DNA of 64,000 nt, from contig JAMKCH010007144.1 of the NCBI GenBank assembly GCA_023653785.1, positions 86,880 to 150,879 on the forward strand. The letters run 5' to 3'. This document shows, piece after piece, positions 11,601-53,262 of the stretch (its first letter is position 1; the number at the start of each line of letters is the position of its first letter). A model generated the notes under the pieces. The model saw nothing but the letters and a program-made list of their open reading frames with translations, had not been told where the DNA came from and made no database searches. The position numbers and the translations under genes are program-made. Origin of the DNA: Ophioderma brevispina. Taxonomy: Eukaryota > Echinodermata > Ophiuroidea > Amphilepidida > Ophiodermatidae.

Positions 11601-13690
11601 TTGTAATCATATCTCACGCAATGTGCCAAGAACATTGCACTATTCAACTGAGTCGTTCAAATACAGACCTTTGCGAATTGCGCCTACCTCTTCTCTATTG
11701 CGAAGAGCAATTGCTATTTAGTAAGGAATTATTGTAGAAAATATCAGATTTCGAGAATGTGATGGTAACCAAAACGATAGACACCAAAAACATTTCTCCC
11801 CGCATTTCTCACACGAGAAATACTATGAAAACAGAATTGACAACCTCCTGGCTCCAAAGATGTTTCCATTGATACAGGTTTTCATAACACGCACACATAC
11901 ACATTGATCATGTTTACGTGACTTACGTCATAACTTTACGGGATTGTGAACATATCAATATCCGTCGGATAAATCTGGATGAAAATTTCATTAGCTATAA
12001 TGTTAAGTGCTTACCTGTAAGTAAAAAACCGGTAATAACTTGAATTTCAACTTTTTATGCACTTGACAACTATACAAAACTCCGAACAGGACTCCGAAGC
12101 AAAAGTTCAAGCGCCAGCTTGTTGTGATGTGCATGCAATAGAGAAATATGTGTACACAAAACTCTCAAGGGAAATTGAATACTAGCAGCTTAATCATTGC
12201 CAGAAATACTAATGAAGGTCACTATAATACCATGCCAAATATCGTCAGAATAGATACAAACCAAATTGAAAGTCATCCTTCAATTGTCTCTTTCTTCGCC
12301 TATGAAAACACTGTGGAACTACAAACAATACAGAGGAGGTTTTAAACCATTTCCACAAAGCTATATGGGGAAATTGTGACCCCGCACAAAGCCTATTCTC
12401 AACACACAAAACCCAGACTCTCGTGCTTTTTTGGCCTAGAAAATGTTAGTATCTAAGGAACGTTTGCCATTTTCTTTAGGGAACTTGTTGTTCTTAGAAA
12501 TCATAAGTACAGTACCCTATAGGTAGATTGTACGTTATTGGTTTAAACCACCTTTTGACTGCAAATACACTTCTGGACACTTATGACCTCGTTAACTTAA
12601 ATTTAAGGTTAATGGGTGAGTGGGAAAAAGCAGATGATTTTGATGGGTTCTTAGGTAACTCTTCAGATTATGTGGGATTTCCTAGGTAAGTAATATGCAG
12701 ATTTTAGTTGGCTTCCTATGTTACTATGCAGATTGTGTGGGTTTTGCTTGTGTGTAACTATGCATAATATTACTGTTGTAGACTTTGTGCAATTAGAGCC
12801 ATATACAAATGTCGGGAGAATTTAATAACTGTATTTAAGTTTTGACATTCTTCTTAATTTTAGAAACTTGCTATTTATAGGTGTGATGCGCATTCATTTC
12901 GGGATTTCGTTTTCCATGTTTTCGTAACCAGCTGTAACTCACATTTTTTTATTTCCATATATAGCTCAATTCCGTTTCTGACGTCCGTTTTGCTATCTTT
13001 TTTTTCGTGATGGACTACATTATTTTGATACGTAATGCTGTCTAATTTACCTTACATTTTACATGTTTTAGGTGCCTGATTTTCTCCGGATTACGATGAG
13101 CCATCGTGACTGTATTATCTTTTCCACTGCACCGTCTGTATTTTATAGACTAAATTCATACCAATGAGACATAATGATGTCAATGTCTACTTAGAAATCA
13201 CTAAAGGTGCTGCTAGGATTCCAATAACCAATTTTTGTTAGTTTTATCCAATGATTTGTAATGATTGTAGTTTGTTAATACATACAAGGCGTCCCAAAAA
13301 CGTTACATGAAAGCTCATGAAGAAAGAAATACACAATACTTAAATACACAGCAATTAGTGACATATCTTTTTTCGACATTTAAAATCATTCTCAGTCCCC
13401 CATCTGTTTATTTTCTCTTTTAGAAGAGTGCAAATGCCAGGAAGTTACTTTCGATGAATGGAGAGAAGTATGCATGAAGTCATTCTAGGTTTTTGTTTCA
13501 TATCATGAATGTTTTATCGTCTTCACAGAGCATGCATATAAAAAGTGGTCTCACATTTCTGCCTTCGGAATATAGGTATTAGACGTTTATAACTCTAACA
13601 TATATTACATTCTCAAGATAATACTGTACTAGTTTATTTTGCTATTCAGTACTAAAAATATCCAGACATCTTTACACATAGTGTAATTAT
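8660..13690. repeat. Tandem segmental repeat, unit A
   Basis: A ~5-kb sequence collinear with unit B/C. Matching blocks are 8660-8890 with 15778-15990; 10010-10220 plus 10565-11240 with 16740-17520; 11596-12870 with 18935-20158; and 12873-13690 with 29389-30121 plus 32781-32835. The ~360 bp at 11240-11595 has no clear partner. No convincing coding sequence was found; the frames at 10900-11194 and 11380-11737 occur on both strands and are probably chance. It contains one 344-bp insertion (10221-10564). Its nature, whether a large transposon or an ordinary segmental duplication, is not settled. Confidence 0.8.
10221..10564. mobile_element. 344-bp TTAA-flanked MITE
   Basis: Both sides carry TTAA (10217-10220 and 10565-10568). 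The ends are inverted repeats, AGGGGGATGGCCCGAT on the left and AGGTCCATGGCCCGAT reading in from the right, 13 of 16 matching. The paralogous sites at about 16918-16940 and 32955-32970 read straight through (CATTCTTAAAGTGCAT), so this is a filled versus empty site. TTAA duplication is typical of piggyBac-type elements. No transposase is present. Confidence 0.88.
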
Positions 13691-13693
13691 GGA

Positions 13694-15777: not shown

Positions 15778-16237
15778 ATTAGAGTAATACGTAGAAAATG
15801 CTTATTTGATGAGGTAACGTTAATTTGTTTAAAGAATAAAAAAAAAGTTTTTTACATCTGCATTGTATTTATAAAAATACAGGCGTTAGTTTTGTACATA
15901 ATTATAAATCGAGTGTGGAGTAATCTACTTTATTAAACTATTAGGGCTATTAAACTTACCTGCATGACTGACCTATACAGTACACAATCATACACCATTA
16001 AGTGCTTGCACCTCCAGCTCCACGCATGATACGTGTAGATATCATATACATGTTCAAGAATTGTTAGTTAGTTGGGTTTGGATTCAGAGTCAAAATATAT
16101 AACTGGTGTAGATACGTTGAAAAAATGACGTATCTAATAAAATAAGATTGATATCAGTTATCAATGAACCTGCAGCTTGGACTAATACATATGGGCTAGC
16201 GGTAGGGGTGGGGTAGGAGAAAGGTGGGTGGCTGTTG

Positions 16238-16503
16238 CAATGGTTGGTTGGTTGGTTGATCGTAGTTCCCTCCTCTCTAGGAGCACCAAACTTCTGTAGT
16301 TTGTTATGTCAAATTATGGCAAAAGTCAAAATGGGCAACATAGGACCAGGTATCAGGTCCATGTAAAGTCATCAAAATTAGCAAACAGTCAAAATAAAAT
16401 GGTATGACAAGTAGACCAATCAGTTCATGCATCACAATAACAGCGCACAGCTCATAATTAACAAAGTAAATAAGATATGGATGAGTTCATAAGCAGTTAA
16501 AAA
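16238..16503 (+). mobile_element. 266-bp insertion with TGTTG target repeats
   Basis: TGTTG lies at 16233-16237 and 16504-16508. The sister sequence at about 16825 reads GGCTGTTGATGGGTGG without it. The insert begins with GGTTGGTTGGTTGATCG and ends AGTTAAAAA, an A-rich end that suggests a retroposed SINE-like sequence in + orientation. No tRNA boxes recognised. Confidence 0.75.
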
Positions 16504-17540
16504 TGTTGATGGGTGGATGCAAATATCTGTGGGTTGTTGTAAGTGCCACTGCGTGGACGTTTCACTATCGCCAAATGCTTGCATCTCCAGCGACACGCAT
16601 GATAGATTTCACATACTTGTTCAAGAATTGTTAGTTAGTTAGTTGGTTAGTTAGTTAGTTAGGTTTGGATTCAGAATCAACATAAATAACTGGTGTAGAT
16701 ACGTTGAGAAAATGACGTATATCTAATAAAACAAGGCTGATATCAGTTATCAATGAACCTGCAGCTTGGACTAATACATATATATGGGCTAGCGGTAGGG
16801 GTGGGGTAGGAGAAAGGTGGGTGGCTGTTGATGGGTGGGTGCAAATATCTGGGGTTGTTGTAAGTGCCGCTGCGTGGGCGTTACACTAGTGTCTGCGTAT
16901 GTCTGTGAAATGAAAATTATTCATTTCTCAAAGTGCATACATTTTTGCTAAAAACTTCAGAAATTTTAAACATCAAATTTGAAATAGGCAACTCGATCTT
17001 ATAGCATACTTCTCATATCACAACAATAATTGTTACGTTGGAAGAAGACCGAAAACGCAAAGCTGTTTAAATAAATCGTGTCCCTGTCATCGCACCTTGG
17101 ATCTTATCTGACTGTACAAAAAACATTGAAATTAGCTGATTTATATCTGTCAATAAGCCTTTCCGTTCCCTGTCAACAACTTCAAGAATGATACAAATTA
17201 CATATATTCCCAATGCCTCGGAATTTATTAGAAACAATACAATATTCCCAAAGGGAGTGTTGTAAATATATAATCCGGTTATGCATATTCAGTGGCGTAG
17301 CTAGGGGTTTGGCGGCCGGGGCCAGGGGCACATAATGTCACCCCACCCTAATCCCGGGAGCGGAGCGCGCAAAGATTTGCACAAATACTACTTATTTGGT
17401 TGTTATCAAGTATTCCAGTCTTTAAACGGTCATTCAAATCACGTATTGCGGATATAAATTTTACCGTTTGGAGGGAGCGTAGGTTTCATCCGGGGGTGCT
17501 GAATTGATCGACTCGGCACCTCCTAAGGTATATAATCGCA

Positions 17541-17763
17541 TATGTGAATATACCGTTCTGATGCTATTCGCCAGGAAAGAGAAGGACACCTTTCGGACCT
17601 ATAGATAATATCTATCGCTCCTCTACCAACACTGGCTTGATAGCTTAGTTGACAAGAGCGTCGTGCTAGTAATACGAAAGTCGCCAGTTCGAATCCGGCC
17701 AAGCGCACATGTTTTTTTAACACTAACGTGGGCTGGTCATCTCCAGGGAAAGATTAATAAATT
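17541..17763 (+). mobile_element. tRNA-derived SINE, copy 3 (5' part)
   Basis: Full leader (ATACCGTTCTGATGCTATTC), tRNA-like head at 17634-17708 with a decayed box A (ATAGCTTAGTTGACAAGAGC) and an intact GTTCGAATCC, then the CTCCAGGGAAAGATTAATAA tail. The remaining tail (CATCCTTGTCTACCT and on) is displaced to 18887-18935. Inserted into unit B just after CGGCACCTCCTA, where unit A has no SINE. Confidence 0.85.
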
Positions 17764-18886
17764 CTGCTATGTCTCGTGGACGTCAAGGTTACAAATACCT
17801 TTCAAACACAAATAAATGAGCATTGTGCACAAAGGATCTAAATTTTATATAATAACACAGATTTAATGATTTTAATCAGATTGGTTCAAGAATTTGATAT
17901 GTCCAAAACAAAATTACATGTACAATTCAATGATACAGTCAACAATTTAAGTCTTACACAAAGTTCTTCCAGAAGTGACGGCTTATGTCCACAATTAAAA
18001 GAAGCGTTGCAGTTCAACGATGATATGTCCTCACAGCGAAGACTCCGAAATGACAGCATGCAAAGTCACACTTAAAAATCCACGGGTAACAAGATCCATG
18101 GGTATCTTCTCTGTCTTGAAGATAATTTTGTCCAGCAGTTCAAGACGACGGGCTTTTCCCTCGACGACACTATTATTCTGCAATACAATCCAGGTATTCT
18201 ACCACCATCAGTCTGTCGCTAACGTCCTCATTTAGGACCACAGACTGGAATCCCTTTTTCATTCCAAAAACTGAAGCTCTTCTGGCTTAAAAGACGACAG
18301 CAGACAGTTCAGCTATCAAGCTCCGGCGGCATCCAAAATATTATAAATCCTGGCACTATGTAAAGCACAAATCTACCATTATTGTAGATTAAAACTAGCT
18401 ATAATTATATTGTATAGCTCCTGGTTACAACTGCTGGTCCCGAGTCCTTCCAGTGACAAGTATATACCTACTCACAGCTAGATTCCCCTATCCTAATAAT
18501 AAGCATTACAGCATCATCATGTATAAACGTAACCTTGCACCGTCATATCAGATTTCACATAAATTACATCATCTGCATTGCATCACCTCACATTTATACA
18601 TTTATAACATCATGGGAAATTACCTAATCTTGCAATCTGTTTTGATCTCAAAGTATAAACAAGTTGACTCAGTTTCTTAATTTACATCTTGGGGAATTCC
18701 CATTTCTCCTCTTGTGCAATCTATCTAGTTGTAAACAACAGGTGTGGTCTCAATATAGCACTAGGGGAAATTACCTATTCTCCTTTCAGCATAAACAAAG
18801 TACTTTTCCCGCGAGATATCTTTTCTCAAAATTTGAGAATCAAAATAATATTTTCAAACTCAAAATGGAGGCTAATATAACAATAT
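17764..18886. mobile_element. ~1.1-kb insertion in the SINE tail
   Basis: SINE copy 1 runs AATAAATGCTCATCCTTGTC without a break. In copy 3 the two halves are 1.1 kb apart. I see no terminal inverted repeats or certain target duplication, so the mechanism is open. It holds a possible decayed death-fold coding fragment on the minus strand (18031-18247). Confidence 0.6.
18031..18247 (-). pseudogene. Possible decayed CARD/death-fold-like fragment
   Basis: On the minus strand, one frame reads about 20 residues (LNEDVSDRLMVVEYLD...) and then, after a one-base frame change near 18170, another reads about 47 residues (EGKARRLELLDKI...) to a TGA at 18031-18033. The spacing of acidic-D-hydrophobic residues, followed by a K/R-R-x-x-L-L-D pattern, recalls CARD domains, a family often expanded in marine invertebrates. 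A splice-acceptor-like TTCCAG precedes the first part. The match is by eye and weak; it may be coincidence. Confidence 0.25.
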
Positions 18887-18935
18887 ACATCCTTGTCTAC
18901 CTAGAGAACAAAGTTGTTAAAATTTCAAACTGTAA
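18887..18935 (+). mobile_element. SINE copy 3, displaced tail
   Basis: CATCCTTGTCTACCT followed by AGAACAAAGTTGTTAAAATT matches the SINE copy 1 tail at 13888-13935. Unit B resumes immediately afterwards (ATATCTCACGCAATG). Confidence 0.75.
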
Positions 18936-20158
18936 ACATATCTCACGCAATGTGCAAAGAGCTTTGCCCTTTTCAACAGAGTCGTTGAATACAAGCCTTT
19001 TGCGCCCACCTTTTCTCTGTTGTTTGCGCAATTGCTATTTAAGGAATTATTGCAGAAAATGTCAGCTTTCGACGATAGACACCGAAAACATTTCTCCCTA
19101 CATTTCTCACACGAGAAAATACTATGAAAACAGAATTGACAACCTCCTGGCTCCAAAGATGTTTCCATTGATACAGGTTTTCATAACACGCACACATACA
19201 CATTGATCATGTTTACGTGACTTACGTCATAACCAAACAGGATTGTGAACATATCAATCTCCGTCGGATAAATCTGTATGAAAATTTCATTAGCCATAAT
19301 GTTAAGTGCTTACCTGTAAGTAATAACACCGGTAATAACTTGAATTCAACTCTTATGCACTCTGACAAACTGCACACTTATGCACTCTGACAAACTGCAC
19401 AAAACTCCTAAGCGCTCGCTTGATGCGATGTGTATGCAATAGAGAGAAATATGTGTACACAAAACTCTCACTGGAAATTGTAGCCTAATCATTGCAAGAA
19501 ATTCTAATGAAGATCGCTACACCATGCTAAATATCGTCAGAAAAAATACAAAAATTTAAAGTCATCTCCTGTCGCTTTATTCGCCGATTCAAAACCACTA
19601 TAGAACTCAAAACAATACAGAGGAGGTTTTAAACCATTTTCACAATGCAATATGGGGAAATTGTGACCCCACACAATGCCTGTTCTCAACACACAAAACC
19701 CAGACTATCATGCTCTTTTTGACTTAGAAAATGTTAGTACTAAGGGACGTTTGACATTTTCTTTAGGGGACTTTAGGTGGTTCTTAGCAATCATAAGTAC
19801 AGTACCCTATAGGTAGATTCTAACGGTATTGGTTTAAACCACCTTTTGACTGCAAATACACTTCTGGACACTTATGACCTCGTTAACTTAAATTTAAGGT
19901 TAATGGGTGAGTGGGAAAAAAGCAGATGATTTTGATGGGTTCTTAGGTAACTCTTCAGATTATGTGGGATTTCCTAGGTAAGTAATATGCAGATTTCAGT
20001 TGGCTTCCTATGTTACTATGCAGATTGTGTGGGCTTTGCTTGTGTTCGTGTTGTAGACTTTGTGCAATTAGAACCATATACAAATGTCGGGAGGTTTTAA
20101 AAACTGTATTTAAGTTTTGACATTCTTCTTTACTTAATTTAAGAACCTTGTTCTTTAA

Positions 20159-20271
20159 TAAAGTGATTTATTGGTATGAATCTATCGGCACATATATAAT
20201 GAAATATCCCTAAATAAAACGTACCAGATGGTTTTCATGGCCATTGGAGTATTCCTTGCGAAAAAATCCAG
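20159..20271 (+). repeat. Left terminal inverted repeat of the 9.23-kb element
   Basis: Pairs with 29280-29388 at roughly 85 percent identity. The outermost bases differ by a small indel (TAAAGTGATTT versus AGGATTT). Read inward it carries ATTTATTGGTATGAA and then CCAGATGGTTTTCATGG. Confidence 0.8.
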
Positions 20272-20457
20272 ATTTATTCCGACAAATGTACACAACTGTA
20301 TAGCGATCATGGAAGCTACCATGTTTATTCCCTGTTGTATATTTACAACGCCGCATGCAATACCGAAACAGAAACCAGCGAAAATATATCCCATACCCGC
20401 ATATATCACGTGCAAGTTTGCCACAAGCCTCATCTTTGTGAACTTCGTTGAGCACAC
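20182..20457 (-). CDS. 91-residue hydrophobic open frame, possible two-pass membrane protein
   Basis: Encodes 91 residues from ATG. Two hydrophobic segments are visible, about residues 11-38 (with GYIFAGFCFGIACGVV) and 44-66 (with MVASMIAIQLCTFVGI), separated by a short NIQQGI loop. A basic/aromatic C-terminus follows (MKTIWYVLFRDIS...). The stop codon and an AATAAA a few bases beyond both lie inside the left inverted repeat, so the frame reads outward to the element's end. The same C-terminal codons survive at the other end (29303-29352, + strand) but are frameshifted. I recognise no family. It may be a real small protein of the element, a captured last exon, or a chance hydrophobic frame. 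Confidence 0.35.
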   Translation of the reverse strand: MCSTKFTKMRLVANLHVIYAGMGYIFAGFCFGIACGVVNIQQGINMVASMIAIQLCTFVGINLDFFARNTPMAMKTIWYVLFRDISLYMCR

Positions 20458-20769
20458 AGAGGATAGGAGCGAAGGTCGTTTAGAATTTTTTTATTGCAAA
20501 AAAACTACACTTTTTAACACCTCAGTGATTTGAGAAAAATGTTAAGAGGGGTGTTTTATATATCATTTTGTGATTAACAACTAACAACTAACAATCCATG
20601 AAAACGTGGACATTTGAAAAGGGGTCGCGTAATATTTATAGTTTTATCGCAGTCGCACTGCAACCACTGATCTCTATACAATGGATTGGCTACACAACAG
20701 TAATTGTATAAAGATGAATGGAGCAAAGGAGGGGCGGAGGCGAGGTAGGAATGGAAGCAAAAACAGTTA

Positions 20770-20960
20770 AAGTCACCACCATTGTTTCCATGGAAAGAAA
20801 TTCCAACATCGCAACGACACCTGGGACTTTAAAAGTTTTTCCATGGAAGAGGATTTAAAAAGTCCATTGGGACTTTAAAAGTGTCCATGGAAACACTTTT
20901 TAAGTGGCCATGGAGACTTTAAAGGTTTCCATGGATAGAATACCAAAATCTCAAGTCACC
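20770..20960. repeat. CCATGG-rich array 1
   Basis: Repeats of TTTCCATGGAAA and GAGACTTTAAA at irregular 25-35-bp spacing, with five CCATGG sites or near-sites. Related arrays occur only at 24862-24990, 27510-27630 and 28325-28545, all within the 9.23-kb element. Confidence 0.75.
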
Positions 20961-23900
20961 ACAAATATAAATCAATTATACACCCGGGAAAAAGTAATTA
21001 GAGATTAAGAGAAATTATCAGGTAGGCTATTGTCTAGTAGAGGAATAATAAGATAAGAACCGGATGTGGCAATCGCTATTGATCAAGCCTTGAAGCATCC
21101 TATTTGTATCTCAAGTACACGCCAATGGTACTGTGTGAATAATTTCAAATTGGTTAGGCGCAACCCATTAAATGCATGGGACAATTGGCCTCTGAATGTG
21201 GAAAAAAAAAAATGAGGATTCTTTAAAATTACAAAACCTTTGAAACTAATAATGTAACGACTTTACACTCAGATACGTAATAAACACGTTAATTTCTATT
21301 TTGAACATACTACAGTCTGAGACCTATTGGGTTCAGCTACTGTTATTAGCAGTATTAATCATGAAGTTATTATATCATGGCAGTAGTATAAAAACTTTGA
21401 TGTTTATATGACTATAATGCTATTGCAATTCACAAAGTATCAGCTCCCTGGAATTGCCCGCGCAACTCGAACATAATGTACGGATTTGACACCCAAAATT
21501 CCGGAAGACGATTATAAATTAATACGGGACATGTATTGACGAAACAGTGTGTCCACGCTACTTAGCCGCGAAAAAGTATAAACACTTAAATGACATAGTA
21601 TGGGTAGTAATTTTATCAAAAATAATTAATCGCTATACTCATTCAATGATTTTTCTTATAGTTCTCAAAATCTGTCACTGATATGTCTTTAAATTGTAAT
21701 TTTAAAAAAAAAAATATCATATTTAAAATTATTTAAAACGCACCCAAATTATCAAGATATTTAATTAACGTAAAGGGTGTGCAAAACTGGTAACCAATAC
21801 TAATTTTTACATGCTGCTGTAATTGAGATTGGTGATGTAATTTTTGATATTTTTAAGTAAATAGACGCAATCGTTAAGTTAATAATTCATCATTCATAAT
21901 TTATAACAACAAAACAATTTGTAAAAACAAAAGAACACAAGCAGTAAGTTTAGATCTTATTTCACTCAAATTTTGATTACTCAAACACCCTCTTATTTGT
22001 TAATTTAATTAGCAATTATTATTTTGAAAGAAAAACGAATTAGTGATTAAATGTTCTGACTAGTGATTGTGGTTTAAGTATTTAGTTTCATAAGTAGGGG
22101 GTCCAGGGTTTTATCGGCCCTTTATGTTTATAATTTACTAGATGAAGTAACGGGCTATGTTTTAAAATGATGATTAATGTTAAACAAGGGCAAATAGTAC
22201 CTCAAACCCCTTTTTTTTGTTTTCCTCTTTCTTTCCCCTATCATTGGCCTAACTTGATAAATTTCTTGGAGTATTTTAGCACAGTAAACATGGTTTAATT
22301 TAAATGTGTTTGACGTTGAGTACAGGTAGAAAAAAAAAAGAGTTGTACTGAATTGACATTTGTGAGGTTAATCAATGTAAATACATGACTGAGTGATAAA
22401 TTTACTAAATTAAATTCAACCGGGTTACACTTAATGTTTTTTGGTTTTTAGTTTTGAGTAGATACAGGGAATTATTATTTAAGTGTAGTTTTGCAGAAAG
22501 TATACGAAATACGTGTTGACGATAATAATAGTTAGAGTAGCATTTATGTACAGATTTTGCTAAGGCGAACATTTTCTTTAACAGGAACTGTATATACGAA
22601 ACCTTAAATATCTTAGTCATTCGAACGTCACTGTTATTATCAAGCGTTTTCGCATTTTATGTTTAAAACCGATTTTTGACACCGTCTCATATACAAAACA
22701 AAAGATCTAAGTCGACGTTTTTTATGCTAAGAATGTTATGGTAAGCACAAGTTAAAGATTTGATCCACTCTTACTTTTATATTCATTCTGTGACTGATAT
22801 GCCTATAGTAAATACAAAATCTCCCTTTTAGCATGTTTATTAAATGATATGTTTAAAGAAATGAAAAAGGAGATGATTTTCCCTTTTCTCGTTCAAACGG
22901 ATATGCTTAGAGGAAAAAAGTTTGTTAGGAAACAATTTGCACTTAATTAGTGTGAAACACCTGTTTTATGAAAATGAAAAGTAGGAAAAAAAAAAGCATG
23001 CATCGCAAGTTTGAACTTGTATGATGTCCTAAATCGGCCAAACGGAAGCATGTATTGACCGTGTCTGACAGACCACTACCCTCTCTCTTTTGCGTTCTCG
23101 GTTTATTCATCTGCTATGGTTTAATACTTGGTACAGCATGATTAAATTCAACAAAAAATCGGTTAAAAAAATGGGGGCCTGTTATTGAAATTCCTTGTGT
23201 TTTCTTTACCGTCAATGGACAAGGTCTTCCTGAAGGACGTTGGTGGACCAGGGCGCCGGTCCGCAGGATTTTTTGCTACAATATTACACAATGCAGGTGA
23301 TTAGACATGACAATTCAAGCAATAAAAATTAGAATTCTACAAGAAACCCCAAACATTAGGAGCAAAAATAATTTTCCAAACTTCTGAAGAAAAAGGGGGG
23401 AACACAATTAACACGGCGTAGTTTCCACAATATATATGTGTGGAATGAAAAGTTGTATGTTTTCTTTTACCATTAATCTAAATAAGATGTATATTTTGGT
23501 CGGGTGGGCCATTGTTGTCTTGTACTTACTATTGGTTTGTACAGGTAAATAAGAAAACACGGATCTTGCTCGAGTACAGATCGACGGATTCGAAATAAAA
23601 TGAAGATATAAAGCATCTAAAAAGGATACGTCGTTTTCCAAATTATTGGAAGGTTTGTTAATGATTAATAGGCCACAGCGCTTTGAATCCATTGGAAAAG
23701 GCCGCTAGCAAATGTCCGGTATTCTTTTAGTAATTTCATGTATATTTATTGTTTATGTACCCATTAATATGCAAACATTTAGACAGAAAAATATTAAAAC
23801 TACGGGTTTGATTTTTTACTGACACCCGATTTTATTTAAGAAGGTTACAGTCTATGCTTTGACTTTCATTTGTTTTCATTTTTTAAAATCTGCGACGACG

Positions 23901-24861
23901 TCTTTCCATAACAAACAAAATACTTTTCAGTCGGGTCATTTTTATTTTTAACTCACTTTTGTAAACACATCCTGCCCATATATAAAATATCCCTTTTCCA
24001 CTTTGATCCAGTTGTAAAAAATCTGAACCGATGGTTCGCATTGTAACCAAACAAAAAGTAAATTAAAGACCTCATATATGCAGAATTTTTTTAATATTGA
24101 TTATATCAATTTATAAAGACATAAGATTCTATTCACCAGGACTCGGCCCCCTAATAAAAAATAATGTTTCGGTATTAAAAGCCGCCCCGCAAATAAGAGA
24201 TTTCACATACCAGGCCCCCCCCCCAACAAAAAAAAAACCCGGAAAGCACTGATTTTCGCACTGATCAATGGCCTCTATCCATGATCACTAATTTCCGTGG
24301 AAAGAAATTAACCTCGGACTTACCTGAGAAATAGAGGCTTTTGGTAAATATTCGCACAACATCTAATTTCGTATTGGAAACCAATACAATGCAGCCTTAT
24401 GTTTTATTATTGAACTTAAATATAAGCAAATAAATCTATTTTGTATTTCATTGTTAAAGGGAATTTCTGTAGCTAAATACATCGGTAAAAATCTATATAA
24501 AATTGGTACAAGTGACATATCATATTATTGGATGCCTTCAAATCTATCGTTGCACTTAATTATGCAAGAGTCCCTTTATAATCAGATTGTAAGTTTAACA
24601 AATATATTAAAGGAGATATTCAATATATGTTCTGTTGTTTGTAATTTTTTTTCATTCAAAGCCCATACACTATGGAACTCTAAAAACTAGTGTATGGGTC
24701 CAACACACAACGATATGAATATGTTCAAGATATAAAATACTACACAACCACATAAAAGTCTGCGACTTGAAGTAATTTCTTATGATATACTGCCCCCCCC
24801 GTTATTGTCATATATAGTAAACCGATTTGACAAAGCAATTTTTTAAAGCGATTGGTATTGA
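20961..24861. other. AT-rich interior of the 9.23-kb element, no gene seen
   Basis: Nearly 4 kb of AT-rich DNA with homopolymer runs (for example C10 near 24217) and only short frames (22405-22620 minus, 23408-23692 minus, 24451-24690 plus) lacking motifs. I saw no repeats shared with the rest of the window. Confidence 0.5.
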
Positions 24862-24990
24862 AGACTACCGTGGAAACTTTTCTAAAAGTCAAAAAGTTCC
24901 TTGGTGAGAATGCAAAAATGGCAAAAGTTCCATGAAGTATTCAGGAAATTTGCAAAGTGACATGACATGTCAATATTGTTCCACGTATCA
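24862..24990. repeat. CCATGG-family array 2
   Basis: Starts AGACTACCGTGGAAACTTTT and continues with TTCCATGAAGTATTCAGGAA. Collinear with 27510-27630 but with most CCATGG sites decayed. The LINE at 24996 has landed at its right edge. Confidence 0.65.
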
Positions 24991-24995
24991 AAGCG

Positions 24996-26330
24996 ATAAT
25001 AATAATAATAAGAATCAAATAGATTTAATATAGCGCCAATTGCAGGTGCGCCACTAGGCGCTTTACAAATTTGCAGACAAAATAAACTCTACAATGGAAT
25101 TTTATATCCTTTTATTAAAAACAGAACCACCTGAATAATATGTGACAACTTATAAATACTTTAAACAACTATACCGGTACTTACTACACTGAAAGCTATT
25201 TAACGACATTACAAGATATCCAAATACACAAAAATGTCAGACAAAAATTGTTGTATTGTAAAACTGCGGAACATGTGACCAGCACATGGCAGAAGTAAAA
25301 AACAATTACAATGCGAGATTCGCTGACAGGAAATGCGTCCCCAGGAGAGGAGAATGGTACTAGCACTAGCATCTCAGCAAGATCTTCAGATCTGATTCCC
25401 ATGATGGCAGATATTTGGTGTTTTGGGTTAATTGCACACAAGTGACGAGATTATGACTCGCACAATAGTTAAAAATCGTGAAAACAAATGAAAAAAAAGT
25501 ATGAAACCAGCGTAGAGTAACTCACAGGTAATTAATGAACATGAAATGCAAGATGAAAAAGATGCGTTTTGAGTTTATATTGGAAAATGTCAACGAAGGG
25601 GATTAGCGAATAGGGATAGGAAGCTGGTTCCATAGTTTGGAAGCGGCAAACCGAAACCGCCCGTTCGCCGTAATATTTCGTCGATGAAACACTGGCACCA
25701 GACGACGCTTAGAGGCCGATCTAAGTGTTCTGCGGGAATGTTACAGGACGAATCAGGTCCGAAATGGAAGGGCGCTTAAACCCATGGAGGGCTTTATACG
25801 TGAGATAGCAGGAATCTTGTAAGCGGTACGCTGTGTGTACTGGTAACCAGTGTAATCTATGGAGTACAGGTGTGATGTGTATGACGGCGTAATCTGGCAA
25901 CAAGACGTGCAGCCGTGTTCTGCACTTTTCTGAACTTCGCTATTTCTTGCTCTGGCAGACCGAAGATCAATGAGTTGGAACAAATCAGCTTTGACGTAAC
26001 AAACGCATGGATTAGTATTCTAACGGTGGAAGCTTCATTGAGATGGTCGAATTTGACCGATCTTTCTATGGGCCCCACAGATTGTTGACTGGTGGCTCAT
26101 ACATAACGATGGATCAAGAATAGCACCCAGATTGCGAGTTTTTCCGATGGCCGAATGATGGAATCGCGACTTTCACAGAAGGTTTCCAGGTAGTTTTGCG
26201 AAATTGGATGAGAAATACAACAGTTCCCGGTCTTGTTATCCATTAACAACCAGCTTGCCTAAAACACCAGGATTTGATATCAGCAATACAAAGCTCCTAT
26301 CCTTCTAATAGACCTTTCCCGATCTTGCGG
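24996..26330 (-). mobile_element. 5'-truncated CR1/L2-type LINE
   Basis: Read on the minus strand from 26330, frameshifted pieces encode the last part of a non-LTR reverse transcriptase: KLVVNG..DRELLYFSS, then KTRNLGAILDPSL (26120-26150), HAFVTSKLICSNSL with VQNTAARLV (25905-26010), HITPVLHRLHWLPV with LTYKALHG (25780-25870), and FRFAASKLWNQLP (25640-25680). These follow the usual order in CR1/L2-group elements. The 3' end has GGCGCTATATTAAATC and a TTATTATTATT tail (24996-25011), also typical. Multiple frameshifts and stops make it dead. The catalytic half of the RT is missing. Confidence 0.88.
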
Positions 26331-26464
26331 CGAGAATGTCACGTATAACTGTGGATCACTGTGTATAATTATAAACGAGTTATAAAAACTCTAGACAACC
26401 AGTGGGCCTTAATTTGTTAAGTTGTTACCGTATAATTTAAACCATGACCTACCCGACAATCATA

Positions 26465-26640
26465 GTGTGTAACAATTCGTATAATCTCTGAAAGGAATGC
26501 GGCACTTACAATATGCGCATTCGTTCCTAATTCTGTAATTAGCTGTAACTAAGACTCTGAACCGTTTTTTAATCGCATTGTAATACTTTTGAATCCTTAA
26601 AATGGAAATTAAACTTGCATGACTTGTTAGAGCCTAATAA
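26465..26640. repeat. Diverged duplicated segment, copy 1
   Basis: Shares blocks such as AACAATTCGTATAA, ACTTACAATA and AAATGGAAATT in the same order with 27700-27890. Both lie inside the 9.23-kb element. Confidence 0.5.
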
Positions 26641-27509
26641 GCGGCGAAAATGAAGACGTGAGTTTGACGTGTTAGCGACTGATGACATCATTAGCGGGCA
26701 TAAATTATTTTTAAATACGTCTCGGTAATCCTTAAACGGAATCCGCACTTACAATCAGTTAACATTCAAATAAATTTGGTTGTTAAGAAAATGTCTCTAT
26801 CATGTGCATGTTAATGCCACGAATACTTTAGGCAAGGTATATAATGCAATAGAATTCATTAAGATGCGTAACCAAAATTCATTTCTTTTATCCGATATTT
26901 TTTACAAATATTTCTTTTATTAATCTGAAAAAGATAAAGTCAATTAGTAAGTCCTAAAAATGATATAGGACGGTGGCACCTTTATATATAATCTTACAGT
27001 AAACAAACCCAAATAAAAAAAAGGACATGAAAAAAAATAGGTTAGTGTCGGTATGTTTCCAAACTGGCCAACAAAATAAATAGCAAACATTAAAAGATAA
27101 TAGAAACAACAACGTGGAATCGTCCGAAGTTACAATTTCTCCATGAACGGACCGGTAATGAGTTTGTACCAGAAGATAATCATCCAGTAATGTTTGCGAA
27201 TGTAACGAAAACTGGACGGCAATGGCATTTTTTATGATTGTAAGCGCGCGTAAGAAGGTTGAAACCGACTGCGTTTAATAATAAAACATTTATCTCAAAA
27301 AGAGAAACCTTCGGTCCATCAGAGTGAAAGTAGCCAAGGCTGCGAAAAGACATTTATGATAAGACACAAATTTACTATTATGAAGGTATTATTTATAAAA
27401 AGAGTTACTCTAAAAAATACATTCATACGATTGTACCATCGTACGTTCTTTATCCAATTACACTTTTTTATCCAATACAATTTTTTCTCTGAAGCATTTT
27501 GTAGCGACT

Positions 27510-27630
27510 ACGTAAAGACTACCGTGGAATCTTTTCTAAAAGTCAAAGTCTCCATGGAGATTGGCAAAGTTTTCATGGAAAGTATTCAGAAAATGCAAAA
27601 TGACCATGATTATGTCAATTTTCCAGCAAG
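27510..27630. repeat. CCATGG-family array 3
   Basis: Starts AGACTACCGTGGAATCTTTT and has TCTCCATGGAGATTGGCAAA and TTTTCATGGAAAGTATTCAG. The 113-codon frame at 27356-27697 runs through the array and is probably chance. Confidence 0.65.
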
Positions 27631-27699
27631 AGTAATAAATGTTATGAACTCAAAGAAAAATTTGTTAAGTTCTCAACAAGCCATACGCCGACCCTGACA

Positions 27700-27890
27700 T
27701 AATTAGCGTGTAGCAATTCGTATAAGGCCTAATCATCTCTGAAGCTCTGACCTACTTACAATAGTTGCATAATTCGTAATTCCGATATTTGAAACTTAAA
27801 AGTTTAAAGCTCCGATCCAGTTCATTTTCTTTGCAATGTATAAGACTTCTGAAATGGAAATTGAAAAATTGACTTTACACTGCTAGGGAT
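27700..27890. repeat. Diverged duplicated segment, copy 2
   Basis: Counterpart of 26465-26640, following CCATGG array 3. Confidence 0.5.
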
Positions 27891-28324
27891 TAAATAAAAA
27901 ACGATGTCCATGCTAGTATCTGATCCGTTTTAGGAAAAAACAAAACCAACTCACAAAATAAATTTGTATTATGATCTGATTTCCATTGTTAAAATTCACT
28001 TATAGGCCAAGGGTCCTATTGGCATTTTGTCTTCACTGATTGAGTGAAATGAACAAAATAAATCATGACATTTGTCTAATAGTATTTTTGCTGTTCTTAC
28101 TGCCATCGCTACTGCAAAAGGTACTGTACCCTTGGCAAGGGCCATATTTTATGCTGAAAATTATTCGGTATAGGCCTAAGTCTTATTTCACGTTGAAAAA
28201 TGTAAAGAAAAGACGGGTGAAATTACGGTGAATTTACGTACAGTCGATGTATAGTTTCGGAAGGTAGGTCTGTGTGCACTTAGTATAGTGTTCCCCGTGT
28301 TCGCTGTCAATTGGTAAGATGTAA

Positions 28325-28545
28325 TTTGTCCATGGAATCTTTTAAGCTCTTTTATTGACACCATGGAGACTTTGGTGCGATTTTGCAAAGTTTCCATGGA
28401 AAGATTCAAAGTTCACCACCGTATCAGCCCAAAGCGGATGTATCCGGTCCATGGAGACTTGGGTGTTTTGACAGTTTCCATGAATCTTTTATTCCACCTG
28501 GAGACTTTGCCATTTTGATTTTTTACCATGGCATCTCACGGAGAC
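28325..28545. repeat. CCATGG-rich array 4
   Basis: Contains GTCCATGGAATCTTTTAAG, ACCATGGAGACTTTGG, GTTTCCATGGAAAGATTC and GGTCCATGGAGACTTGG at 30-60-bp steps, like array 1 and in the same orientation. The small frames at 28383-28634 and 28528-28722 (+) overlap it and show no recognised motif. Confidence 0.7.
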
Positions 28546-29279
28546 TATGCAAGAATTGTACGGATTGCTACCTGCGGACAGGCGAGGAACTTGCAGTTAC
28601 AGAACACAATGGCCTACAGAGACACCTGTTGTAACAGAAGTGTATCCAGGGTGAACGTTTTAGAGGACATGCCATCCATACGCGCAAAGACAATGAGCTC
28701 AATGAATGGCTTGATTCTGTAGTCTGTTATGTCCGCTTATCCACATGTCAATGGAAACAATTTTGTATAAAATGCCGGCTCTTAACCACCTGCTTGGGCT
28801 CTTTTGGATGACCAATAGGCTATCAGTGCTCATTTTACGAAGCCCAGGTTTCCAATCATTGTATAGAGATTAGTGTTCGAAACCCACTAATGGCGGTGGT
28901 TCAGCAAATCTACGTACTTTTCAATGGTATCGAGTATAGCGCTTCTTTTGTATGATTATAGGTTCTCATTTATTTTAAAAACTATCTTTCTCAAGAATCC
29001 CAGGCTCATTGTATAAAAATTAGGCACCAAAGTATGCATTTTTGATTAAATTTATATATTTTAAAGAAAACGTTAAATTAAAGCTGTGTTTGTAATTTCA
29101 ATGTTAATGTAAACGCGATTAGTCTTTCCTATAGGCCAAACTGACTAACCACCGATCATCTTTCAATGGTGTGAAAGACTAAACATGGCTTGTGGCAAAC
29201 CGATAGCGTAAATAATAAACGCGGTGGTTCATTAATCGTCACTTGCGAAAGTGAGGCGTGAAAGGGGGGGGGGGGGTAT

Positions 29280-29388
29280 GTTTTCTTCGCAAGGAAATTA
29301 CTCCAAGGACCATGCAAACCATCTGGTACGTCATATTTAGGGATATTTACCATTATATATAGCCGATAGTTTCATACCAATAAATCCT
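29280..29388 (+). repeat. Right terminal inverted repeat of the 9.23-kb element
   Basis: Inverse of 20159-20271. Carries the decayed counterpart of the ORF C-terminus (MQTIWYVIFRDI) and the AATAAA at about 29379. A run of about 14 G (29263-29276) lies just inside it. Confidence 0.8.
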
Positions 29389-30121
29389 TTAAAGGTGTGA
29401 TTGCATTCATTCGGGATTTGATTTGATGAACAGCTAACTCACAAAATTTTTTTTGATTTCCTGTACAGCTCATTCCGTTTTCTGATGATGTTTTGCTATC
29501 TTTTTTGTAAGGACCACATTATTTTGATTCGCCCATAATGCTTTCTAATTTACCTTATATTTGACATTATTTAGTGGCCTGATTTTCGCCGGATAACGAT
29601 GAGCCATCGTGACTGTATTATCTTTCCTACTGCTCCGTCTGGTTTTAAGAATAAATCATACCAACTGAGACTAATGATGTCAATGTCTACTTATAAATCC
29701 CTAAGGCACTGCTATATGATTCCAATAACCAAGTTTTGTTACTTTATGCCAATTATTTGTCATGACTGTAGTTTATAAAAGGGGGCCTCCAACATGAAAG
29801 CTCATGAAGAAAGAAATACGCAATACAATACACGCATTAGGGACATATCTTTTCTCGACCATTTCAAATGATTCTCAGCCCCCACCCCCCCCCCATCTAT
29901 TATTCTCTTTAGGAGAGTGCAAATGCCAGGAGTACTTCAATGATATGAACAGAAGTTGCATGGAAGTCATTCCTGTTTTTGTTTCATATCACAATGCTTA
30001 TCGTCTTCAAAGAGCACGCATATAAAAAGTGGTCTCACATTTCTGCCTTCTGAATATTAAACATATTAGACATTCCTATAACCTTAACATGTTTTACATT
30101 CTCAAGATAATACTGTACTAG
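29389..30121. repeat. Tandem segmental repeat, unit B/C, middle part
   Basis: Continues unit B after the 9.23-kb element. Matches unit A 12873-13630 (GGTGTGAT, CATTCATTCGGGATT, ACGATGAGCCATCGTGACTG). Interrupted at 30121 by the next insertion. Confidence 0.8.
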
Positions 30122-32780
30122 GTATCAGACGTAGTCTGTATATTGAATTGGTCTCCTTTTGAAAATCCAAAAATGTGCCGACAGAGGACAGTAAGTGTGC
30201 ACGATTGGGGGTAGGTACTGCCGTGTGCATTGCTGAAAAAAATTTGATACTTCTGTTAACGGTTTGGGATAGAGGAAGCGGGGTTTGGAGCATAAATGGA
30301 TATGTTATGTGTTGAAGTCTTCTCCAGGGCCGAAAAGGCTTGTTTTGTTTTTTGTGAGGAAAAAGGTGGAATTTGGACGATTTGTGAGGCAAGAAGTTTC
30401 AAGAAAAGAGGTACATCCAGAGGACTGCAATGTGGAATAATCCATGTTCCTAAATGGGGACTATCATATTGGAGAAAAATATTAATGAGTGGTGCTCGGA
30501 GAGCGAGTGTGAATAAAAATATAAACTATGGGAATCTGAAGGCATTTGGGGAGTGGATGTGGGTATAACAATTCAGAACATTTTGGATGATGCTGAAAAA
30601 GAATATAAGTTGTGTTTATTTTGAAGTGGACCAGAATGTACCTGTGTTGCAAGATGGTTTCAAATTGCATTGTGGACTAAGAATGTGGAAGGAATCAATG
30701 AAACAAATCCAATACCATAATACATTGTGTAAATTATCCAAATATATTTAAAATAGTGAACATCAAATTTGTAAATGCAGTCTGAGGTCTCATCTATTTG
30801 TGTTATGGGATATGGTGAAACTTCTAATCTCATAAATAGTCCCACCTATTTTGTGGTGTCTTAAGCTTTGCAGAACAAGCAAGTCATGAATACAATAATT
30901 CCCCTCATGATACCTTGTGGGAAATTGTGTGAAATTACCCGTATACACAAGGCATATAGAGAATAACATATGTTATCATCAAGGTCCCATATTGTGTTGT
31001 GGGATTTGGTGCACACATGCATTATAATCATGTTTGTCCTTGGGCCACTTAAGTGCTCTGGGCTCCATGGGCGTCCCTGCTTGGGCCTATACTATTCATT
31101 GTCATAATTGACATGTTTTTCTTGCTAACTAATATATCAATTAAAATAATTTTGCTTACTGCTGTGGGATAGAGTTAGTTTGTCCAAAAAAAATTTAATG
31201 AGAAAAATCAGTCCAATTTGATATCTTAACATGACCTGTTGTTTCAATATAGTTTTTTTAGGTATCTGAATACTATGTACTGTAAGATTGGATATGTGGC
31301 TGTAAAGAATCAGAGAAAGTGAGAGTGTGAGCAGTCCGGCACGGGCACTCAACTTTTTTGCGTTCGGATTTGTGTGGCCGACTTCCAACTTAAGGGAGCT
31401 TTGGGAACTGATTTGTCTTTAATAGGGCCCTTAGAATTAGAAAAAAAACAACTGTACAACAGCCCTTGCGGGAAAAATTTTCATAAATTATGCAAAATTA
31501 GATACTTAATTAGCATATTTTACAAACACCCAAAATCTAATTTCAGGTTGAGAACTCATCAACCGCTTTCTTTCCACCAAGTTACAATATCGTAGCCTTA
31601 CGAACTCCAGATAAATTGTACACAATGTTGACATTTTCTGTGCAATATTGACCTTTTTTGTGCAATATTGACCTATTTCCCCTACCCCCTGACAGACCCG
31701 GGAGGACCCTGAGGGGATGAATTACATGGTGAGTAGGGTATTCCCTCCTACAATATACCCAATTTTGGCTACTCTAGCTCATACGAAAAAAAGATAATCC
31801 AAAATGTTTTTCCAGGGTTAACATTTTTATCACGGACATACGGACGGACGGCATACAGACGGAGCCATTTTATAGTCCCCTCCCGAACTTGTTCGGCGGG
31901 ACAAAAAATGAGGAATCTAGGAGGCTTTTGAACTAAAATTTGGCTTCAAAAATTCAGCTAGGAAAAAAGGGAGAGTGAGAGAGTTGATGAGGCGAGAGAC
32001 CGGAGGGGGGGCACTCTGGGTAGGGAAGTGTGTCGCCCGACTTAGACACAATAGTTGAACTTAGTTACTTTGGAACTGATTTTTGGTTTCCCCCTTTTTT
32101 ATTTTTTTTTTTAAATTAGGGTCTTAGAAGTGATTTGGAGGAATATGCAGAGTGCAGACTTTAGAACTCAAATTCGGCCTCAACTTAAGGCTTCTGAGGC
32201 AACGATTTCCAAAAGGGACCTAGAACTAATTCTGCTTCAACGAGCTGGAAGTATTAGTCACAGTCAGTGCTGGAGTGCTGTAGAGGCGTGAAATGGGGTA
32301 GTCGGCAAAGGAGAACCCTGGGGTGGTTTGGAAGGAGAAACATTGGATAGTTGGGGAGTGACCTGGGGTAATTTGGGAAAGAAATCTAGGGTTAATTCAG
32401 AAAAGATCATGATGTCTGTAACGGAGACCCATGAGTATTTTGGAATTGGCCAGATTTTGGGGTAGTTGTGAATGGCACCCTGTGTTATATGAGAATTTGT
32501 TAGTTACTTGAGAAGGATTGCTCGTGGGCAGCTGGGAGGGGCTCATAACAATGAAAAGGGTAATCTTGTGTAGTTTGAGAAGGACATGTGGCATTTAGGA
32601 CCTTAGACTCTGGGAGGTCAATAAAGTGGACTTACGTTCAAAGGGCCCTGGGGTATTTAAACGGGGCCCTAATATGTAGGTTACAAAAGTTTACTAACAT
32701 TACAGGTCCGTCTGATAAGGTTCCGTACGGAACCTAACAACGCTCCCGCCGAAATCCGCGAAAGCCGAGAACCGCGAAAT
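30122..32780. mobile_element. 2.66-kb insertion with CTAG repeats
   Basis: Unit A reads ACTGTACTAGTTTATTTTGC unbroken at about 13626. Here ACTGTACTAG ends at 30121 and CTAGGTTTATTTTTTGC begins at 32781, so CTAG is duplicated on both sides. No clear terminal inverted repeats. Contents are a 90-codon frame (30296-30568, +) without motifs, a repeat of the GTCCCGCCGAA family (31500-31902), a degenerate GGGGTAGTTTGGAA-type minisatellite (32280-32560) and an 18-bp palindrome at 32718-32735 (half AGGTTCCGT). It could be one element or a nest. Confidence 0.65.
31500..31902 (-). repeat. GTCCCGCCGAA-family repeat, copy 1
   Basis: Read on the minus strand it starts GTCCCGCCGAACAAGTTCGG and continues with GGACTATAAAATGG, CCGTCCGTCC and TGATAAAAATGTTAACCC. 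The same string in the + orientation starts at 33457. The body past the ends is diverged. Confidence 0.75.
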
Positions 32781-32835
32781 CTAGGTTTATTTTTTGCTAT
32801 TCAGTACTAAAATCCATACATCTTTACACACATCG
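32781..32835. repeat. Unit B/C, end part
   Basis: TTGCTATTCAGTACTAAAAT and CATCTTTACACA match unit A 13637-13690. Directly followed by unit D. Confidence 0.75.
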
Positions 32836-32839
32836 TGTA

Positions 32840-33155
32840 AAGCATTAGAGAAAGGTGGGTGGCTGTTGCTAGGTGGGTGCAAATATCTGGGGTTGTTGTA
32901 AGTGCCGCTGCGTGCGTGTTACACAAGTGTCTGCGTATGTCTGTGAAATGAAAATATTCATTCTTAAAGTGCATAAATTCTTGCTTAAAACTTCAGAAAT
33001 TTTAACATCAATTGAAATGGCAACTCTTATAGCTTACTTCTCATATCACAACATTAATTGTTACGTTGAAAGAAGGCCGAAAACACAAAGCTTTTAAATA
33101 AATTGTGTCGCGCTGTCATCGACCTTGATCTTATCTGACTATCAACCAGAATAGT
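32840..33155. repeat. Tandem segmental repeat, unit D (fragment)
   Basis: Begins in the AGAAAGGTGGGTGGCTGTTG block and matches unit A 10090-10790 and unit B 16810-17120, ending near ATCTTATCTGACTATCAACC. Has the empty TTAA site (TTCTTAAAGTGCATAAATTC). The 74-codon frame 32873-33097 inside it is chance. Confidence 0.8.
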
Positions 33156-33280
33156 CTTTTAAAAAGACAACCATCGCCCAGCGAGGGGATGTTAGTACTT
33201 ATATGTTCTGTACATACTTGGATCATAGGATTTCGTGATTAGAGAGATTATAATAACCACAGTATATATTTCAGGCATCA

Positions 33281-33437
33281 ACTCGGGGCGGATCCAGGAT
33301 TGGAAAAACTTCAAATTACCAGGGGGCTGAAAGCTGAAACTTGTCTAAAATGGGCTGATTTTGGCAAAATTTTGCATTATGACCGGGGAGCGCGCGCCCC
33401 CCCCACCCCCTCCTAATCCGCGCCTGTCACCATACTC
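33281..33437. mobile_element. Short MITE with GGGCGGATC-type ends
   Basis: Left end CTCGGGGCGGATCCAGGATT and right end CTAATCCGCGCCTG form an imperfect inverted pair around ~130 bp with a C-rich subterminal run. Ends of this kind are common in animal hAT-like MITEs. I could not see a clean 8-bp target duplication. Confidence 0.55.
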
Positions 33438-33454
33438 AGCATTAACAACCGTAA

Positions 33455-34692
33455 TTGTCCCCGCCGAACGAGTTCGGAACGGGACTATAAAATGAGTAAA
33501 AGAAAGCGTGCCGTCCGTCCGTCCGTTCGATCGTTCGTCCGTCTGTGATAAAAATGTTAACCCATGTTGTAAAAAGAAGGACGATTTAATCTGGAGTTTC
33601 GTGGGCTACAATGATGTACTTGGTGGAAAAGCGTGTTGATGAGTTCTCGATCTTATTTTAATTTTGGGCTAAAATCTGTTCTAAGTGAGTATCTTCTATT
33701 TGGGCAATAATTTATGAAAATCTTCCTGCAAGGCCTGTGTACAAGTTTTCTGGAGTCCCGTATGGCATATAATGATATAACTTGGTGGAAGGAAGCGGGC
33801 GGAAGAGTTCTCAACCTGATTTATTTTGGGTGTATTTCGGCAAATTGAGTATGCAAATGAGATAATTAATATGCAAAAATCCAGCGTAATTGCCCATATT
33901 TTGAAACGGTATCACGGATACTAAAAATTCCAGCACTGTATGATAGCCTATCATGGGCACATCTTTTTTTGGCAATTTTGAAAGTAAGTATGTGATATAT
34001 TACGGCTTAGTGTATGCAAATGAGCTAATTACATATGCATATTTGCTGTATCTCTGAATGGTACGTCTGGATGCAAAATTCCTTTGCTACATTGACTACG
34101 ATACATGGGGTGGATGTTGGGGTTGTTTGGGAGTTGTGGAGTTGTTTGGGAGGGGGTGCTGGCAGTTGCGGGGTGTTGGGGAGAGGCATAGGGTGTTGCA
34201 TGTTGTTTGGGAAGGGGTGTTGTAGAGGGGGTGTACGTGGTGTTGGGGAGTAGGGGTGGGAGTGTTACGGGGTGTTGGGAAGGGTTGAGGGTTTAGGGGT
34301 GATGGGGAGGGAGGGGCGTGGCGTGTGTGGGGTGTTTGGGGAGGGGATGCGTGTTACAGGGGTATTGGGGTGGGGTGGGGGTTGCAGGGGTTGGAGTGTT
34401 GAGGGGTGTTAGGAGGGGTGGGGTGTTTGCTAGGTGGGGTGTTGCCATGGTGGGGTGTTGCAGAGTGTTGGGAAGGGTTGGTGTTTGGGGATGGTGTGTT
34501 AGTTGGGGTGTTTGGGGAGTTGTGTGTTGTTGGGGAGGTGGATGGTTTTTGCGGGGTGTTGGGGAGGGGGATGGGTGTTCTTGTTGTTTGTGTCGGGGGG
34601 TGTGTTTTTTAGCATTTTGTTGTGTGAGGTGTGGGGTGTTGTAGTTGCATTTATCGCATATTAGTGGTCGCGACATTCGGCGGGACTATTTT
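33455..34692. mobile_element. Candidate GTCCCGCCGAA-ended element, copy 2
   Basis: The left end reads GTCCCCGCCGAACGAGTTCG (from 33457) and the right end TTCGGCGGGACTATTTTTAC (34676-34695), an inverted pair. The left interior has GGACTATAAAATGAG, a CCGTCCGTCCG tract and TGATAAAAATGTTAACCC, as in copy 1. The right half is filled by the G-rich minisatellite. Whether both ends belong to one element is inference. Confidence 0.45.
34108..34652. repeat. G-rich minisatellite, quadruplex-prone
   Basis: About 545 bp in which the + strand is almost free of C and built from shuffled GGGGTGTTGGGGAGG, GTGTTGCAGGGG and GGGTGTTTGGG units. Dozens of G3-G5 runs lie within a few bases of each other. Long frames on both strands (127 and 108 codons) are low-complexity by-products, not genes. 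Confidence 0.85.
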
Positions 34693-45667: not shown

Positions 45668-45715
45668 ATTTTTCAGGTTGATAAGTATAAGGACATCACA
45701 GAGAATCACTTCCAA

Positions 45716-48138: not shown

Positions 48139-48202
48139 AAAGAAGCCATTTTCAGGTATGATGATGTATGATGCATGATTTATGTATGATGTATGATGCT
48201 TA
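48139..48202. repeat. ATGATGT/ATGATGC short tandem repeat
   Basis: Units of ATGATGTATGATGC with a decayed middle (ATTTATGT). Confidence 0.7.
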
Positions 48203-51139: not shown

Positions 51140-51144
51140 CTGTA

Positions 51145-53215: not shown

Positions 53216-53262
53216 ATTGTAACTCATAGTGATGCACCTTTCGTTGCAGTGGATGCTCTAAA

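What the first reader, a model, noticed from the sequence alone, without database searches (positions are those of the whole stretch)
20159..29388. 9.23-kb TTAA element with ~108-bp inverted ends and no recognisable transposase
TTAA at both joints, mirrored ends and a paralogous uninterrupted site define one insertion. TTAA-type (piggyBac-like) elements are usually a few kb, so 9 kb is unusual even after subtracting the ~1.3-kb LINE inside. It may be an undescribed large family or a composite.
Basis: partly seen in the sequence, partly recalled or inferred. Interest (0 to 1): 0.85.

Follow-up and report, generated by a model that had tools for sequence, protein, structure and literature searches.

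The report
Small TTAA transposon split by nested insertions
What looks like one unusually large jumping gene is a common small one of about 1.4 kb that was interrupted by a second, larger mobile element, itself hit by a retrotransposon fragment, so it is an ordinary nest of old genome parasites rather than a giant new transposon.

Summary
The inverted ends, TTAA joints and uninterrupted paralogue are real, but the 9.23 kb is not one element. In the source genome (2.5 Gb, unnamed) the left end gave 3260 first-look candidates; all 40 scored, the window included, are 95-100% identical. I fetched 20 of the other 39. The two ends belong to an element of about 1.37 kb: in 15 of 20 stretches the left part runs straight into the right part, and no stretch carries the window's middle inside the element. 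TTAA precedes the element in 19 of 20 and it begins AG in 20 of 20, the published Kolobok/T2 signature (passages of PMC6004289, PMC9587614). It is most likely a non-autonomous Kolobok-type transposon, not piggyBac. The middle, about 20742-28574, is a second interspersed family with its own fixed ends, about 6.5 kb without its LINE. The LINE fragment, 25003-26370, is missing from the two relatives that cover the site. No Pfam domain appeared in six frames. Nesting explains the size. The superfamily of the middle element is unresolved and is the only part that might be new.

The parts
20155..20158 (.). TTAA, left target copy (followed by an extra TAA before the element)
   Evidence: 19 of 20 other copies have TTAA directly before AG
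29389..29392 (.). TTAA, right target copy
   Evidence: 11 of the 14 right ends examined in other copies have TTAA there
20162..20266 (+). left terminal inverted repeat of the Kolobok-type element (AGTGATTTATTGG...)
29281..29388 (-). right terminal inverted repeat (AGGATTTATTGG... read inward)
20162..20741 (+). left part of the ~1.37-kb non-autonomous Kolobok-type element
   Evidence: aligned, in part or whole, in 20 of 20 fetched copies
28575..29388 (+). right part of the same element, with a possible duplicated target of the nested insertion at its start
   Evidence: directly joined to the left part in 15 of 20 copies; junction letters
20742..28574 (+). nested element of a second family (7.83 kb with its LINE, about 6.5 kb without); ends uncertain by a few bases
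   Evidence: left end: 170 first-look candidates, 40 scored; right end: 123 candidates, 40 scored; relatives L037, L038; not found inside the element in 20 of 20 Kolobok-type stretches
20781..20945 (.). left cluster of CCATGG-centred palindromic repeats near the nested element's left end
28323..28535 (.). right cluster of CCATGG-centred palindromic repeats near the nested element's right end
25003..26370 (-). 5'-truncated LINE fragment (end of the reverse-transcriptase ORF, with stops) inserted in the nested element
   Evidence: translation; missing from relatives L037 and L038, in which the two sides lie together
12701..13200 (+). paralogous site without the insertion

Best explanation
Three old insertions lie one inside another. 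First, a ~1.37-kb non-autonomous DNA transposon inserted at a TTAA site by cut and paste, using a transposase supplied in trans. It belongs to a large family in this genome, and its TTAA target and AG termini point to Kolobok (T2-like). Second, a ~6.5-kb element of another family, with its own fixed ends and CCATGG-palindrome clusters near both, inserted into the middle of this copy. Third, a ~1.37-kb truncated LINE copy inserted into that element. Shown: the structures, the fixed ends, and relatives without the inner insertion at each level. Inferred: the superfamily (from target and termini only) and mobilisation in trans. The confidence given is for the nesting; for the Kolobok label it is about 0.75.
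For: Left end: 3260 first-look candidates, 40 of 40 scored at 95-100%, window included. 20 fetched copies: window-element positions up to ~577 run directly into ~8420-8460 and onward in 15 of 20 (junction letters of 13 loci shown, 12 of them uninterrupted). TTAA directly before AG in 19 of 20 left joints, AG in 20 of 20; TTAA in 11 of 14 right ends examined. Nested family with a fixed left end (36 of 40 scored places have a piece starting at query base 1-11) and a fixed right end (37 of 40 at base 1-9), window included in both. In this copy the nested sequence starts where the 1.37-kb family breaks off and stops where it resumes. LINE-free relatives at the LINE site: 2 of 2 that cover it. Paralogous empty site.
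Against: No transposase was found, so the Kolobok label rests on target site and termini alone. The immediate left 4 bp in the window are ATAA, not TTAA. 5 of 20 copies do not show the direct junction: L023 and L028 are deleted across it, L012 has another ~1-kb insertion, and L010 and L014 have no right part in the stretch fetched. 3 of 14 right ends lack exact TTAA. The target duplication of the nested element in this copy is imperfect.
Confidence: 0.9

Rival explanations
1. One 9.2-kb TTAA element (large autonomous or decayed Kolobok or piggyBac) whose short copies are internal-deletion derivatives.
For: Published Kolobok copies reach 6.8-13.9 kb; small copies often derive from large ones (general knowledge).
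Against: 0 of 20 fetched stretches hold the middle inside the element (E up to 1e-10, up to 1e-3). The middle's ends recur at other loci with unrelated flanks. Its scored relatives are mostly 75-87% identical to it, while scored copies of the outer family are 95-98% identical over the outer 300 bp; both lists are capped at 40.
Confidence: 0.04
2. Label rival: the TTAA element belongs to piggyBac or Sola3 rather than Kolobok. This leaves the nesting untouched.
For: piggyBac also uses TTAA (passages). That Sola3 uses TTAA is recalled; no call showed it.
Against: Left ends begin AG in 20 of 20. PMC9587614 (passage) gives 5'-RR termini as what separates Kolobok from piggyBac. No Pfam transposase domain, though a non-autonomous copy would lack one anyway.
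Confidence: 0.2
3. Mutator-like element with a 10-12-bp imperfect target duplication, which scored above TTAA on this joint alone.
For: Score 10.17 against 4.37 or 6.12 for the TTAA readings (the top row, 10.32, was a 2-bp AA repeat). 3 of 500 random joints scored as well. TIR over 100 bp fits (PMC5225508 passages).
Against: Other copies are flanked by TTAA, with no longer shared repeat seen by eye. TTAA on both sides of a random joint is also rare: 70 of 20000.
Confidence: 0.02
4. Assembly join rather than a biological nest.
For: Draft genome of 65,844 contigs; no reads were available.
Against: No N in the window; the inner joints match ends that recur at other loci; both parts of the outer element continue into flanks that match one paralogous site.
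Confidence: 0.03

Closest known systems
T2-MITE / Kolobok superfamily (Xenopus; PMC6004289, passages and section 15 seen)
   Same: TTAA target, AG or AGG termini, inverted ends, non-autonomous relatives; one listed end (subfamily A1, right) shares its first six letters AGTGAT with the left end here
KolobokP (PMC9587614, abstract and passages seen)
   Same: Belongs to the same superfamily, found in several animal phyla
   Different: KolobokP has long terminal direct repeats of about 450 or 660 bp; a self-comparison shows none here
piggyBac
   Same: TTAA target
   Different: Termini are AG; no transposase domain found
Mutator-like and P elements, as leads for the nested family
   Same: MULE: large size and subterminal repeats (PMC5225508 and PMC13359780 passages). 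P: 7-8-bp target duplications (PMC5199201 passage), against a 7-bp match at one locus and 6 of 7 at another
   Different: Ends are short and imperfect; no transposase; the other three pairs with both ends recognisable show no clear duplication, so no membership is claimed

Membership tests
Kolobok | TTAA target-site duplication | tested here: met
   Left TTAA 19 of 20; right TTAA 11 of 14 examined, the other 6 right ends not examined (L016 and L019 share flanks and may be one site). Window: TTAA on the right, TTAA 3 bp off on the left
Kolobok | 5'-RR...YY-3' (AG) termini | tested here: met
   Left AG in 20 of 20 (letters; the pattern asks for AG); right ends read AGG inward in 14 of 14 examined (by eye). 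Definition from passages of PMC9587614 and PMC6004289
Kolobok | Kolobok-type DDE transposase in an autonomous partner | not testable with these tools
   No Kolobok transposase sequence was at hand; Pfam found no domain in six frames of the window copy
KolobokP | Long terminal direct repeats | tested here: not met
   Self-comparison of the window copy shows no direct repeat of the two ends
piggyBac | TTAA target | tested here: met
piggyBac | Termini not of the 5'-RR type, as contrasted with Kolobok | tested here: not met
   AG termini; contrast from a PMC9587614 passage
Sola3 | Sola3 termini and transposase | not tested
   Its TTAA target is recalled; its ends were in none of the passages seen
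Mutator-like (outer element) | 8-10-bp target duplication | tested here: not met
   Other copies have TTAA and no longer shared repeat by eye
P or hAT (nested element) | 7-8-bp target duplication with defined ends | tested here: inconclusive
   Of 9 paired loci, both ends are recognisable by eye in 5 (C16765, C25196, C55642, C56267, C61543): 7 of 7 bp at C56267, 6 of 7 at C16765, none clear at the other 3
P, hAT or other (nested element) | Superfamily transposase | tested here: inconclusive

The most novel reading that the evidence does not exclude
The nested family, with ends GAGCTAGGAATGG / AGGTAGCAATCC, CCATGG palindrome clusters near both ends, and correctly facing ends about 4-19 kb apart on 12 contigs besides the window's (hit tables; that each pair is one copy is not shown), could be a large transposon type whose transposase is not yet described.
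Probability: 0.1. Interest if true: 0.5.

Novelty: new member of a known kind. Interest (0 to 1): 0.15.

Why it matters
It removes a false 'giant TTAA transposon' and shows why size and superfamily should not be read from one interrupted copy: the joint alone scored higher for wrong duplications. It also defines two repeat families of this genome and leaves one open question, what moves the larger nested family.

Tried and rejected
Transposase in the 9.2-kb stretch: six frames, X at each stop, no Pfam family at E up to 1. Elsewhere in the window the same method gave one weak reverse-transcriptase match (E 0.0024, 18.1 bits, below Pfam's cut-off of 29.6), but it missed the decayed LINE inside the element, so its silence is weak evidence. 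Longest stop-free stretch 144 aa against 92-165 in 60 simulated sequences. Nine ORFs (five in the element outside the LINE, one in the LINE, three outside the element): seven had no Pfam match at E up to 10, two had matches below cut-off, best 0.041. A guess of mine at a captured host gene at 20182-20457: no homologue, dropped. ORF 27263-27694: one candidate, none at E up to 10. TIR patterns, exact: two in viral contigs and one in prokaryotic contigs, no match, expected for what looks like an animal repeat. Mutator-like reading of the joint: scored above TTAA, rejected by the other copies. Dating by arm divergence (7.9%): dropped, because left and right arms differ by a similar amount between copies too. 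Host identity: not found; Pfam on six frames of 44389-59388 gave only the reverse-transcriptase match. Sola3 ends: not in the passages seen of PMC8634313 and PMC5199201; most of the other papers listed were not opened.
Full report
What was claimed.

The observation. The inverted ends are real: 88% over 106 columns, E 3e-31, z 16 against 200 shuffles. The outer 25-mer, with up to 3 mismatches, occurs in the window only at the two ends, chance expectation 0.00. The paralogue at 12701-13200 continues on both sides and lacks the insert. Substitutions against the paralogue are 7.4% (left flank) and 9.2% (right flank). The joint taken alone was ambiguous. TTAA, TTTAA, CTTTAA and TAAAG, among others, fit exactly at different cut points. 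A simple log-odds model ranked a 2-bp AA repeat (10.32) and an imperfect 12/10-bp duplication (10.17) above the TTAA readings (4.37, or 6.12 with shifted ends). As controls, 3 of 500 random joints reached the imperfect duplication's score; 70 of 20000 had TTAA on both sides; 352 of 20000 shared an exact 6-mer.

The left end (window 20159-20459) gave 3260 first-look candidates, of which 40 were scored, all at 95-100% and all covering at least 299 of the 301 query bases (the one at 100% is the window itself). I fetched stretches for 20 of the other 39, the best-scoring ones (L025 is cut by the contig end, and L010, L016 and L021 are short because the contig begins there). All 20 match the left part at least to element position 407. 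In 15 of 20 the positions up to ~577 are followed, within about 45 bp, by positions from ~8420-8460 on; some of these 15 have further insertions elsewhere (for example L009 and L026). Two are deleted across this point (L023, L028), one has a different ~1-kb insertion there (L012), and two have no right part in the stretch (L010, L014). No stretch has the middle inside the element; the only matches to the middle at E up to 1e-3 are to an interspersed repeat (window 24362-24496) in flanking DNA of L017 and L020. Six copies without further insertions span 1351-1415 bp: L017 1351, L018 1362, L011 1372, L019 1377, L016 1394, L027 1415.

Target and termini. TTAA stands directly before the element in 19 of 20 left joints (ATAA in L017), and the element begins AG in 20 of 20 (letters, pattern). 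I examined 14 right ends; the other 6 were not located. Of the 14, 11 are followed by TTAA (10 by the script, L009 by eye); L011 has TTAC, L012 one extra T, L023 TGAG; all 14 read AGG inward. L016 and L019 share flanks and may be one site counted twice. In the window the left joint is TTAA-TAA-AGTG, so three bases lie between target and element, which starts at 20162.

What it is like. PMC9587614 (abstract and passages seen) states that Kolobok makes TTAA duplications and, unlike piggyBac, has 5'-RR and YY-3' termini. PMC6004289 (passages and section 15 seen) gives TTAA and AGGRR for the T2 family, AG at all 20 ends of Table 5, and lengths of 6,763-13,907 bp for ten full-length copies. The outer element fits target and termini. 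It carries no detectable transposase, so I file it as a probable non-autonomous Kolobok-type element, with the transposase test open.

The middle. The sequence starting at 20742 is the left end of a second family: 170 first-look candidates, 40 places scored, mostly 75-87% identical apart from the window itself; 36 of the 40, window included, have a piece that starts at query base 1-11. In 7 of 7 other auto-fetched loci (L030-L036) the similarity starts at GAGCTAGG (GAGCTATG in L032) with different flanks; the window has GAGGTAGG. Its right end (28574) gave 123 candidates, 40 scored, and 37 of the 40, window included, have a piece that starts at query base 1-9. From the two hit tables, 12 contigs besides the window's carry both ends facing correctly, roughly 4-19 kb apart for the nearest pairs; that each pair is one copy is not shown. 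L038 is a shorter relative with both ends; L037 covers most of the length. Of 21 matches in the window to CCATGGARACTTT with up to 2 mismatches, 17 lie in this stretch, 13 of them in the clusters near its two ends. A diverged internal duplication of ~1.24-kb period is visible once the LINE is subtracted. Target duplication: 9 paired loci were looked at; both ends are recognisable by eye in 5, with 7 of 7 bp at C56267, 6 of 7 at C16765 and none clear at the other 3. In the window an imperfect GCGGAGGC / GCGGACAGGC pair flanks the insertion (letters, by eye). No Pfam domain was found in this copy or in L037 3700-10000. Superfamily unresolved.

The LINE. 25003-26370, minus strand, is a truncated LINE (reverse-transcriptase C-terminal reading with stops; that reading, and the clade, L2/CR1-like, are recognised from memory). 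Relatives L037 and L038 hold its two sides next to each other, with 4 bp of overlap and 5 bp of gap.

Conclusion. Three nested insertions explain the 9.23 kb: ~1.37 kb, ~6.5 kb and ~1.37 kb. The size that made the finding striking is the product of nesting.

Noticed in passing
window 10000-13700, 16100-20150 and 29389-30200: Diverged segmental duplication (7.4% and 9.2% substitutions in the two flanks) that supplies the empty site.
   Followed up: partly
window 58695-59791: LINE-type reverse-transcriptase remnant (RVT_1 match E 0.0024, below Pfam's cut-off); its ORF 59303-59758 has ten homologues among public predicted proteins, 50-74% identical.
   Followed up: partly
window 13757-13833 and 17633-17708: Two tRNA-Thr-like sequences (the second also an Rfam tRNA match) at the head of a repeated block, looking like a tRNA-derived SINE; a third block starts near 14931.
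   Followed up: no
window 31543-33819: Inverted pair whose flanks are also mirrored (ACACCCAAAAT... side by side with TCAGGTTGAGAACTC), a possible 2.3-kb DNA transposon.
   Followed up: no
window 53280-53815, 14030-14884, 54879-55677, 45662-47754, 57988-58139: Further inverted-repeat pairs that look like fold-back or MITE-type elements; 46513-47700 lies within 45662-47754.
   Followed up: no
window 24362-24496 and 50534-50659; L017 2203-2332; L020 2304-2430: An interspersed repeat of about 135 bp, 70-72% identical between places, inside the nested element and elsewhere (locus positions converted from the turned stretches used there).
   Followed up: no
window 20665-20689 and 28852-28875: A second mirrored block 506 and 513 bp from the two ends of the outer element (92% over 25, E 4e-4; z 4.95), suggesting its inverted symmetry once reached further.
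   Followed up: partly
L037 1-453 and 3521-3976: Two copies of the nested family's left end together with similar flanks (85%), a local duplication that includes the insertion site.
   Followed up: no
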